A DNA stretch of 36,484 bases. Source: Thermoleophilaceae bacterium (lineage in GTDB: Bacteria > Actinomycetota > Thermoleophilia > Solirubrobacterales > Thermoleophilaceae). The translations under genes and the position numbers were made by a program. Of this stretch, positions 17,153 through 18,918 are shown one piece after another. Position 1 is the first letter of the stretch. Each line of letters begins with the position of its first letter. The notes beneath the pieces were generated by a model, which was given only the letters and a program-made list of their open reading frames with translations, ran no database searches and was not told where the DNA came from. The stretch lies in assembly GCA_036378175.1 (NCBI GenBank), contig DASUWY010000036.1, positions 1 through 36,484 of the forward strand, read 5' to 3'.

Positions 17153-17579
17153 GAGCACGGCAAACGCGGTCTGGGAAGGCGACCTCGCCCATGGGGGCGG
17201 TCGCGTTGCACCCGGCAGCGGAGCGTTCGACGAGCAGGACGTCACCTGGGCGTCGCGCACCTCGCGCTCGGCCGGGAAGACCTCTCCCGAGGAGCTGATC
17301 GCGGCGGCCCATGCCGCCTGCTACGCGATGGCCTTCTCGCACACGCTCGCCGAGGGCGGACACACGCCCGAGCGCGTGGAGGTGAGCGCCACGGCCACCT
17401 TCGAGACCGAGGGCGGTCCGCGCATCTCGACCATGGCGCTGACCGTGCGCGGCCGCGTGCCCGGGATCGACGAGTCCGCCTTTCAGGAGGCGGCCAACGC
17501 GGCCAAGGACGGCTGCCCGGTGTCGGGCGCGCTGAAGGGCAACGTCGAGATCACGCTCGACGCGACCCTCGAGGGCTAG
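17142..17579 (+). CDS. OsmC-family (Ohr-like) peroxide-reducing protein
   Basis: 145 residues. OsmC/Ohr proteins reduce organic hydroperoxides with a Cys pair. Seen here: TSPEELIAAAHAACYAMAFSHTL with Cys60, and DGCPVSGAL with Cys125, the two expected redox residues. The length is normal. It overlaps the aldehyde dehydrogenase by 11 nt and, at its other end, the convergent PTH2-like gene by 29 nt. Confidence 0.93.
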   Translation: MAAESTANAVWEGDLAHGGGRVAPGSGAFDEQDVTWASRTSRSAGKTSPEELIAAAHAACYAMAFSHTLAEGGHTPERVEVSATATFETEGGPRISTMALTVRGRVPGIDESAFQEAANAAKDGCPVSGALKGNVEITLDATLEG

Positions 17580-18162
17580 GCACCAACGCAATCACGGTTT
17601 CGGTGCCGGGCGCCACCTGCGTGTGCCCGGCATCGCTGACCACGACCCCCTCGGGGTGGTCGCGGAACTCGTCCCAGCCCTCGCTGAGCAGCTCGCCGGG
17701 GCGGCCGGCCGCGCGCCATTCGTCGAAGCGGTCCCGGTGCCGGGTGCCGAACTGCTCGACGCACATGAGCGACGCGTGCCCCGCCTGCGCCATCGCCTTG
17801 CCCGCCGTGCGCATCACGCCGGGCTGGATCACGTAGGTCATCGCCGGCTCGCGCTCGTCCTGCTCCTCTTCCTTCGGCCGTGGAGCGTCCGTGAAGGGCT
17901 TGAGCGCTTCCAGCAGCGATGAGCGGTCGGACCGGCGGCGTGGTGGCAGGCAGAGGAGCACGTCCTGCTGGACGGCGCAGGGCTCCTCGTCGCGCACCCG
18001 AACGAAGTCCGCCTCGTCAGCCCTGAGCGCCACCTTGCGCGGCCGATCGTGCCACTCCTCGAACGGGCCGAAGCGCTCCACGCAGCCCACGGCCGCCGCG
18101 CCCGCGGACGCCATCGCCCGCTCGAGCGAGAAGGGCACGCCCGTGCGAACGACGTAGTACAT
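17551..18162 (-). CDS. Tandem PTH2-like (archaeal-type peptidyl-tRNA hydrolase) protein
   Basis: 203 residues from ATG 18162. It contains two copies of the PTH2 start: MYYVVRTGVPFSLERAMASAG (residues 1-21) and, after an acidic linker of about 40 residues, MTYVIQPGVMRTAGKAMAQAG (from about residue 103), each followed by a Cys-Val-Glu-x-Phe-Gly segment. The second copy ends with SDAGHTQVAPGTETVIALVP, close to the DAGxTQxxPGTxTV end of PTH2. The first copy lacks this end and has a different strand (VQQDVLLCLPP), so it looks degenerate. PTH2 frees tRNA from stalled peptides in archaea and eukaryotes; catalytic activity here is unproven. An in-frame TTG at 18213 lies in a terminator-like A/T tract, so I prefer the ATG, although its ribosome site is weak. 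Confidence 0.75.
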   Translation of the reverse strand: MYYVVRTGVPFSLERAMASAGAAAVGCVERFGPFEEWHDRPRKVALRADEADFVRVRDEEPCAVQQDVLLCLPPRRRSDRSSLLEALKPFTDAPRPKEEEQDEREPAMTYVIQPGVMRTAGKAMAQAGHASLMCVEQFGTRHRDRFDEWRAAGRPGELLSEGWDEFRDHPEGVVVSDAGHTQVAPGTETVIALVPSPRGSRRA

Positions 18163-18198
18163 GACCCATGGGTCGTCCGCATCCCTCTGCGCGTTGGC

Positions 18199-18293
18199 TA
18201 CCGACTCAGACAAAAAAATTGACCACCCGTCAAACGAATTGACCCCCAGTCAAACGAATTGACCCCCAGTCAATCGCTTTGTCTAAGTCGGTA
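18199..18293. repeat. Nested palindrome: three 15-bp dyads inside a 16-bp inverted repeat
   Basis: Outer arms 18199-18214 and 18278-18293 are 16-nt inverted repeats with one mismatch. Inside are three TTGAC-N5-GTCAA dyads at 18219-18233, 18239-18253 and 18259-18273, set at an exact 20-bp period with ACGAA spacers. The last two units are identical over 20 bases. This stretch fills most of the gap between the HAD gene and the PTH2-like gene. Confidence 0.95.
18212..18233 (-). terminator. Possible intrinsic terminator downstream of the HAD/kinase pair
   Basis: On the minus strand the third dyad (TTGAC-N5-GTCAA) is followed directly by seven T. The stem is only 5 bp, so it is weak on its own; the two preceding stems may help. 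Confidence 0.4.
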
Positions 18294-18312
18294 GCGCGCG
18301 CGGAGGAGGTGG

Positions 18313-18918
18313 TCAGCGCAGCTCGAGGCCGAGGAGTCGCTCGAGTTCGGGCAGCGTTGAGTCGGCGCCGCGATGGAGGATGCCGGTGATTCCGACTGCC
18401 TCGGCGCCGTCGATGTTCTCGCGCAGGTCGTCCACGAAGACGCACTCGCTTGCGGGCAGGTCGAGCTTCGTGAGAGTGAGCTCGAAGATCTCCGGGCTCG
18501 GCTTGTGGAGCCCCACCTCGCCGGAGATCACGATCTCGTCGAAGATCGAGCGCCAGTCGGCCACGTCATAGCTCGTGCCGCCCCACGAATTGGAGATCAC
18601 GGCGGTGCGGATGCCGGCGTCGTGCGCGCGGCGCATGGCCTCGATCATCGGCTCGTCGGGACCCACCCCGGCGAACAGTCGCTCAACGAGCCCCTCGGTC
18701 CGCGTCACACCGAGGTGTGGCGCGAAGCGCGGCTCGAACTCCTCCACCGTGAGGTCGCCGCGCTCGAGCGCGCGCAGCTCGGCCAGCGCCTCGGGGTTGT
18801 CGCGGAAGGTGCGCTTGACGGTGTCTGCCGGCAATCCCTCGGCAGCGCAGAACGCCTTGAAGGATTCGAAGACGTTTGTGGTGAGAACGCCGCCGAAGTC
18901 GGTGAGGAGGCCCTTCAC
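18313..18918 (-). CDS. HAD-superfamily hydrolase
   Basis: 201 residues from GTG 18918, which overlaps the upstream kinase stop (GTGA). HAD motif I is TDFGGVL with the nucleophilic Asp but Gly at the +2 position, as in YihX- or ACAD10-type HADs; motif II ISNSWGG, motif III Lys in HKPSPEIFELTL, motif IV FVDDLRENI. Probably a phosphatase with a helical cap. Tight coupling to the kinase-like gene copies the HAD plus APH order of the N-terminal half of vertebrate ACAD10. The substrate is not known. Confidence 0.92.
   Translation of the reverse strand: MKGLLTDFGGVLTTNVFESFKAFCAAEGLPADTVKRTFRDNPEALAELRALERGDLTVEEFEPRFAPHLGVTRTEGLVERLFAGVGPDEPMIEAMRRAHDAGIRTAVISNSWGGTSYDVADWRSIFDEIVISGEVGLHKPSPEIFELTLTKLDLPASECVFVDDLRENIDGAEAVGITGILHRGADSTLPELERLLGLELR

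What the first reader, a model, noticed from the sequence alone, without database searches (positions are those of the whole stretch)
18199..18293. Three TTGAC-N5-GTCAA dyads at exact 20-bp period, nested in a 16-bp inverted repeat
The units are spaced at about two helical turns with identical ACGAA spacers, and the whole block is framed by near-perfect 16-nt arms. That nested symmetry suggests a cooperative operator for a dimeric regulator, or a structured RNA / terminator block after the HAD-kinase pair (seven T follow the last dyad on the minus strand). It is not explained by any gene.
Basis: partly seen in the sequence, partly recalled or inferred. Interest (0 to 1): 0.65.

Follow-up and report, generated by a model that had tools for sequence, protein, structure and literature searches.

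The report
Dispersed palindromic repeat element between genes
The block is one of eight copies, in this actinobacterium's genome, of an undescribed short mirror-image DNA element that sits mostly just behind genes and recurs in changed form in related species; it is a new family of a known general kind (ERIC/BOX-like intergenic repeats), not a switch for one gene.

Summary
Three TTGAC-N5-GTCAA dyads lie at exact 20-bp steps inside facing 17-nt arms (18198-18294), where chance expects none. The single-locus operator or terminator reading does not hold. The own genome has 19 such dyads, all in eight intergenic elements framed by the same arm, CTACCGANTNAGNCAA, and a profile search finds no ninth. 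A species of the same genus (Thermoleophilaceae MAG GZL_HY_2_bin.6) has five elements of the same architecture with another arm, CCCGCCGATTCG[GT]CAA. Three of those five sit in the same gene neighbourhoods, including the one in this window. Weaker 77-79-bp relatives with yet other arms occur in several further genera of the family. Copies prefer gene 3' ends; the neighbours (enolase, nadA/nadC, recR, tilS/hpt) form no regulon. Arm letters are nearly fixed within a genome and replaced in concert between species. Arm mismatches are not compensated, and wobble pairs are not enriched on the transcribed strand. This favours recognition as DNA by a trans-acting protein over a pure RNA-structure role. 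I file it as an undescribed dispersed palindromic intergenic repeat that works like ERIC/BOX/MITE elements. Mobility is inferred: no target-site duplication or transposase-bearing copy was found.

The parts
18198..18294 (.). whole element, 97-bp form (arm, N4, three dyads with 5-bp spacers, N4, arm)
   Evidence: profile model R1 matches 18198-18294 on both strands at 60-65 bits
18198..18214 (+). left arm CTACCGACTCAGACAAA (terminal inverted repeat)
   Evidence: exact match to the genome-wide arm pattern
18219..18233 (+). dyad 1 TTGACCACCCGTCAA
18234..18238 (+). spacer ACGAA
18239..18253 (+). dyad 2 TTGACCCCCAGTCAA
18254..18258 (+). spacer ACGAA
18259..18273 (+). dyad 3 TTGACCCCCAGTCAA
18278..18294 (-). 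right arm, CTACCGACTTAGACAAA on the minus strand
   Evidence: exact match to the genome-wide arm pattern
18184..18306 (.). extended imperfect palindrome including weakly conserved outer flanks
   Evidence: folds; arm alignment
18313..18918 (-). HAD-type hydrolase whose 3' end lies 18 bp from the element
   Evidence: Pfam PF00702
17551..18162 (-). PTH2-like protein gene whose start lies 35 bp beyond the element
   Evidence: Pfam PF01981

Best explanation
The block is one copy of a dispersed, non-coding, imperfectly palindromic intergenic repeat element. The element has a terminal arm, an array of TTGNN-N5-NNCAA dyads at 20-bp steps (12 bp around a 7-bp mini-unit TTG[T/A]CAA in the longer form), and the facing arm. 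Copies of 97, 129-130 and 206 bp occur in this genome, 128-129 bp in its sister species and 77-79 bp in other genera. Shown: the copy number, the fixed architecture, near-identical arm letters within a genome, concerted replacement of those letters between species, and residence at gene 3' ends. Inferred: the arms (and probably the dyads) are recognised as double-stranded DNA by a trans-acting, lineage-specific protein, most likely a transposase- or recombinase-like enzyme that spreads and homogenises the copies. Where the neighbouring gene is read through, the copy would be transcribed as a long hairpin in the mRNA tail, as reported for ERIC-type repeats.
For: Census: 19 of 19 exact dyads lie in eight arm-framed loci, and a profile search finds exactly eight copies in this genome and five in the sister genome. 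Nine copies from the two species share one 129-bp layout with only single-base indels. CTACCGA and the following T, AG and CA letters are almost invariant across 16 arms, while dyad cores vary. In the sister species all ten arms read CCCGCCGA[TC]TCG[GT]CA(A/C); six of twelve arm pairs differ from this genome on both sides. Three copies are at the same sites in both species, confirmed by syntenic flanks of 72-98% amino-acid identity. At other sites one species lacks the element: C45, C61 and C51 in the sister, C9 and C185 in this genome, so copies are gained or lost. The generic pattern gives 53 hits in 7 of 31 genomes of the family against 1 for the control. Context: 7 of 24 copies lie between converging genes against 2 of 72 background gaps (p = 0.0007). 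Wobble mismatches (G-T 63, A-C 55 by my tally of the 13 tandem-context copies) give no sign of RNA-strand selection.
Against: No target-site duplication or clean empty site was found: the C61 comparison shows extra sequence beyond the arm, and C45 and C9 have unrelated sequence. No gene-bearing copy with the same arms was found. Three of five sister copies being at shared sites points to long residence or strong site preference, which simple random hopping does not explain. Shared-site pairs are not clearly more alike inside than other pairs.
Confidence: 0.5

Rival explanations
1. The elements are fixed multi-site landing pads for a DNA-binding protein of the cell (for example a nucleoid-organising, segregation or insulating factor). 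The arms and the 20-bp-phased dyads are its sites, and both changed in concert when the protein's specificity changed.
For: Phased dyads two helical turns apart; arm letters nearly invariant within a genome and replaced as a set between species; arm mismatches not compensated (position 8 unpaired in 4 of 8 copies); three sites shared between species; housekeeping neighbours without regulon logic.
Against: Copies are absent at several orthologous sites; copy number is low (5-8) and most family members have none detected. No candidate protein is known.
Confidence: 0.25
2. The element acts mainly as RNA: a long hairpin behind genes that ends or protects transcripts, in both directions between converging genes.
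For: Strong folds on both strands (z down to -12); 3'-end bias; several copies start 9-39 bp after a stop codon. At the C51 site the sister species has a different simple hairpin (GGCTGAAGGATT...AATCCTTCAGCC) right after the same stop codon. One distant copy (G014) keeps pairing through changed letters.
Against: No intrinsic-terminator match; no wobble bias on the transcribed strand; within-genus pairing of inner dyads is only weakly above shuffles; identical arm letters in all copies of a genome are not needed for a stem; some copies lie between two 5' ends.
Confidence: 0.2
3. A cooperative operator for a MarR- or TetR-type dimeric regulator controlling the PTH2-like gene.
For: Superficially similar 20-bp-phased TTG-N9-CAA arrays lie next to what reads as a MarR-type gene and a hydrolase in another family of the order (L147, L149); the element is 35 bp from the PTH2-like start.
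Against: Seven further copies in the same genome sit at unrelated, mostly 3'-end sites; no sigma-70-like promoter match; hits in that other family are at the level of the pattern control.
Confidence: 0.04
4. Chance low-complexity palindrome or assembly artefact.
For: The assembly is a draft in 89 contigs.
Against: No dyad in shuffles, zero in the reversed control, independent assembly of the sister MAG with the element at the same site.
Confidence: 0.01

Closest known systems
ERIC / IRU / RU-1 elements (enterobacteria, 127 bp)
   Same: Short, intergenic, imperfectly palindromic, of nearly equal length to the 129-bp form, with terminal inverted repeats and a predicted long hairpin transcript.
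   Different: ERIC has TA at its ends and target-site duplications (PMC2229807); here the sister species has CG where this genome has TA in the arms, and no duplication was seen. ERIC is not described there as an array of 20-bp dyads.
BOX elements of Streptococcus pneumoniae (boxA-boxB(n)-boxC; from own knowledge)
   Same: Modular: two end modules enclosing a variable number of internal repeats.
   Different: Internal unit here is a 20-bp dyad, not a module of about 45 bp; ends are inverted copies of one arm; no sequence relation tested.
RUP, NEMIS/Correia, YPAL and other bacterial MITE-like repeats
   Same: Small, intergenic, inverted repeats, several copies per genome.
   Different: Defining mobility marks (TSD, transposase with the same ends) were looked for in part and not found here.
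REP / BIME / REPIN sequences with RAYT
   Same: Extragenic palindromes arranged in regularly spaced groups.
   Different: REPs usually exceed 100 copies per genome (abstract of PMC2817692); here 5-8 copies. RAYT presence was not tested.
MarR-type operator arrays
   Same: TTG/CAA half-sites and 20-bp phasing.
   Different: No regulon, mostly 3'-end positions, long facing arms on the copies.

Membership tests
ERIC/MITE-type miniature inverted-repeat element | non-coding, below about 200 bp, several intergenic copies per genome | tested here: met
   8 copies of 97-206 bp here, 5 of 128-129 bp in the sister species, in intergenic gaps by my gene calls; one copy (C78) overlaps a called 3' end by 12 bp
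ERIC/MITE-type miniature inverted-repeat element | terminal inverted repeats | tested here: met
   facing 16-17-nt arms on every copy in the genus
ERIC/MITE-type miniature inverted-repeat element | 5'-TA-3' at the termini | tested here: inconclusive
   CTACC arms here carry TA, but the sister species carries CG at the aligned place in all ten arms
ERIC/MITE-type miniature inverted-repeat element | target-site duplication / clean empty site | tested here: inconclusive
   five filled/empty comparisons, none clean; no duplication seen
ERIC/MITE-type miniature inverted-repeat element | transposase-bearing relative with the same ends | tested here: inconclusive
   no arm with 0-1 mismatch outside the eight pairs in the draft genome; draft assemblies can lack transposons
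Intrinsic (rho-independent) terminator | G+C-rich hairpin directly followed by a T-run | tested here: not met
   0 matches in 17900-18600
Regulator operator (MarR/TetR type) | sites before functionally linked genes or the regulator gene | tested here: not met
   neighbours are enolase, recR, nadA/nadC, tilS/hpt, HAD/PTH2, enoyl-CoA hydratase, mostly at 3' ends
REP/REPIN | cognate RAYT transposase | not tested
   no protein search for RAYT was made
Rfam RNA family | match to a curated covariance model | tested here: not met
   only a chance-level hit, 13.2 bits, E 2.5

The most novel reading that the evidence does not exclude
A chromosome-wide set of a few multi-site DNA landing pads, unrelated to regulation of the adjacent genes, whose arm sequence is rewritten at all loci in concert as its unknown binding protein or recombinase changes specificity, while some sites, the palindromy and the 20-bp phasing persist.
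Probability: 0.25. Interest if true: 0.7.

Novelty: new variant of a known kind. Interest (0 to 1): 0.5.

Why it matters
It gives a repeat family in a little-studied actinobacterial order that, in two related species, sits at some of the same sites yet has had all its end sequences replaced together. That makes a general question testable: are small bacterial palindromic repeats kept by an enzyme that spreads them, by a protein that binds them, or by the transcripts they end? It also warns that phased dyads near a gene start need not be an operator.

Tried and rejected
Rfam, phage records, IMG/VR viral contigs and plasmids gave no relative. Literature searches found no description of this repeat in Thermoleophilia or Solirubrobacter. 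The single-operator idea was dropped after the genome census and neighbour annotation; an intrinsic terminator. RNA-strand selection was tested by wobble counts and not supported. Inner pairing models (TTG-N9-CAA or CAA-N5-TTG hairpins) were compared: both keep 90-92% of cells paired, most of the covariation is in the outer arm, and within-genus inner covariation is weak. A TA target duplication (IS630-like) was considered and not supported, because the sister species has CG there. Shared-site element pairs were tested for closer interior sequence: no clear signal. Arrays in another family of the order (MarR and TetR contexts) are set aside as probable ordinary operators, at control-level frequency.

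Full report
Observation. The block exists as described, with arms of 17 nt rather than 16. Three TTGAC-N5-GTCAA dyads start at 18219, 18239 and 18259, separated by ACGAA, and are framed by CTACCGACTCAGACAAA (18198-18214) and the complement of CTACCGACTTAGACAAA (18278-18294). Shuffles of the window contain no such dyad. The structure is not a single curiosity: the genome (G000, 4.29 Mb, 89 contigs) has 19 exact dyads and the reversed control pattern has none.

A dispersed element. All 19 dyads fall in eight loci, each framed by the arm CTACCGANTNAGNCAA in facing orientation: C12:6512-6640, C12:59907-60003, C36:18198-18294 (the window), C45:59086-59215, C51:55266-55362, C61:70607-70735, C68:69201-69329 and C78:808-1013. 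At up to 3 mismatches the arm pattern returns only chance-level extras (55 hits in all against 64 for the control). A covariance model built from nine copies finds exactly these eight loci and no others in G000. Copies are 97 bp (three dyads), 129-130 bp (dyad, dyad, TTG[T/A]CAA mini-unit, dyad, dyad) and 206 bp (C78, where the model places two overlapping hits, as if two elements were fused).

Relatives. The only other genome of the genus held is G001. Its contig C140 has the length and gene content of JAICJR010000092.1, Thermoleophilaceae bacterium GZL_HY_2_bin.6. It has five elements of 128-129 bp, with arms CCCGCCGATTCG[GT]CAA. Four G000 and five G001 copies align over 130 columns with only single-base indels; the TTG, CAA and TTGTCAA landmarks are nearly invariant, the G/C cores are not. 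In 31 genomes of the family the generic pattern CAA-N5-TTG-N9-CAA-N5-TTG gives 53 hits in seven genomes against 1 for the control. The further copies (G011, G016, G003, G228, G006, probably G014 and G031) are mostly 77-79 bp with their own palindromic arms, for example CTACGACAA, CTACGGCAA, GATTGTGCGCAA and CCATTGAAAT. Their model E-values are weak (0.003 to 0.4), so homology outside the genus rests on shared architecture more than on score. A stricter two-unit pattern in 396 genomes drawn across the phylum found only G000; other members of the family were not in that draw.

Same sites, changed sequence. Three G001 elements lie in the same gene neighbourhoods as G000 elements, with neighbours 72-98% identical in protein sequence: the window's HAD | PTH2-like gap (18 bp after the HAD stop in both), the gap behind enolase, and the C68/C241 gap. 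At other sites one species lacks the element: tilS | hpt, nadA | nadC and C51 in G001; C9 and C185 in G000. At C51 the sister instead has an unrelated simple hairpin directly behind the same stop codon. No clean empty site and no target-site duplication was seen. Element interiors at shared sites are not clearly more alike than at unshared sites.

DNA or RNA. Both strands fold far better than shuffles, as any palindrome would. Three observations favour recognition at the DNA level. Arm letters are almost fixed across the 16 arms of G000 and the 10 arms of G001, while six of twelve arm pairs differ on both sides between the species. Arm mismatches inside G000, such as C against G at arm position 8 in four of eight copies, are not compensated. 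On the transcribed strand G-T and A-C mismatches are about equal, 63 to 55 by my tally of the tandem-context copies. The inner dyads show only weak covariation within the genus (p about 0.01); these rows are related, so this is not strong either way. The scan of the window block finds neither a promoter-like nor an intrinsic-terminator-like site.

Position. Of 24 copies with called neighbours, 7 lie between converging genes, 13 between genes in the same direction and 4 between diverging genes. Among 72 other gaps of 60 bp or more in the same loci only 2 are convergent (Fisher p = 0.0007; 0.004 for the genus alone). Gene calls come from a simple codon-usage caller, so single cases may be wrong: the G001 C241 gap was called divergent through a small ORF and was counted as same-direction by synteny. 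The neighbours are not a regulon: enolase, RecR, TilS/phosphoribosyltransferase, NadA/NadC, enoyl-CoA hydratase, HAD, PTH2-like.

Interpretation. The best reading is an undescribed, lineage-restricted family of dispersed palindromic intergenic repeats. It works like ERIC/BOX-type elements; its arms are recognised in trans by an unknown protein, most likely of the transposase or recombinase kind. Presence and absence between species and concerted arm identity fit this; the shared sites and the lack of duplications do not fit simple recent hopping. A fixed landing pad for a cellular DNA-binding protein, and a 3'-end RNA role, remain serious rivals. Defining MITE marks (TSD, autonomous relative) were not shown, so I do not claim membership of that class. 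Published comparison: PMC2229807.

Noticed in passing
L176 (G001 C263:9300-10493), gap behind the orthologue of the C51 gene: Where this genome has the C51 element, the sister species has an unrelated perfect 12-bp hairpin (GGCTGAAGGATT...AATCCTTCAGCC) right after the same stop codon.
   Followed up: partly
L149:1480-1580 and L147:1-60 (G158, G154; another family of the order): A 20-bp-phased TTG-N9-CAA array lies between a MarR-like regulator start (identified by eye) and an alpha/beta-hydrolase-like gene, probably an ordinary operator with look-alike architecture.
   Followed up: partly
L139:808-1013 (G000 C78): 206-bp copy with six or more dyads and irregular spacers; the model finds two overlapping elements, suggesting fusion or internal duplication.
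   Followed up: partly
L143:8819 (G001 C116:28818): Lone TTGACTGGGGGTCAA with partial flanks and no arms, possibly a decayed copy.
   Followed up: no
window 17551-18162 (-): PTH2-like protein appears to hold two PTH2-like segments (MYYVVRTG... and MTYVIQPG...), only the second matched by Pfam PTH2; possible internal duplication.
   Followed up: no
L135:9047-9310 (G000 C45): The element sits between tilS and a phosphoribosyltransferase gene (hpt-like) that are only a few tens of bp apart in the sister species.
   Followed up: partly
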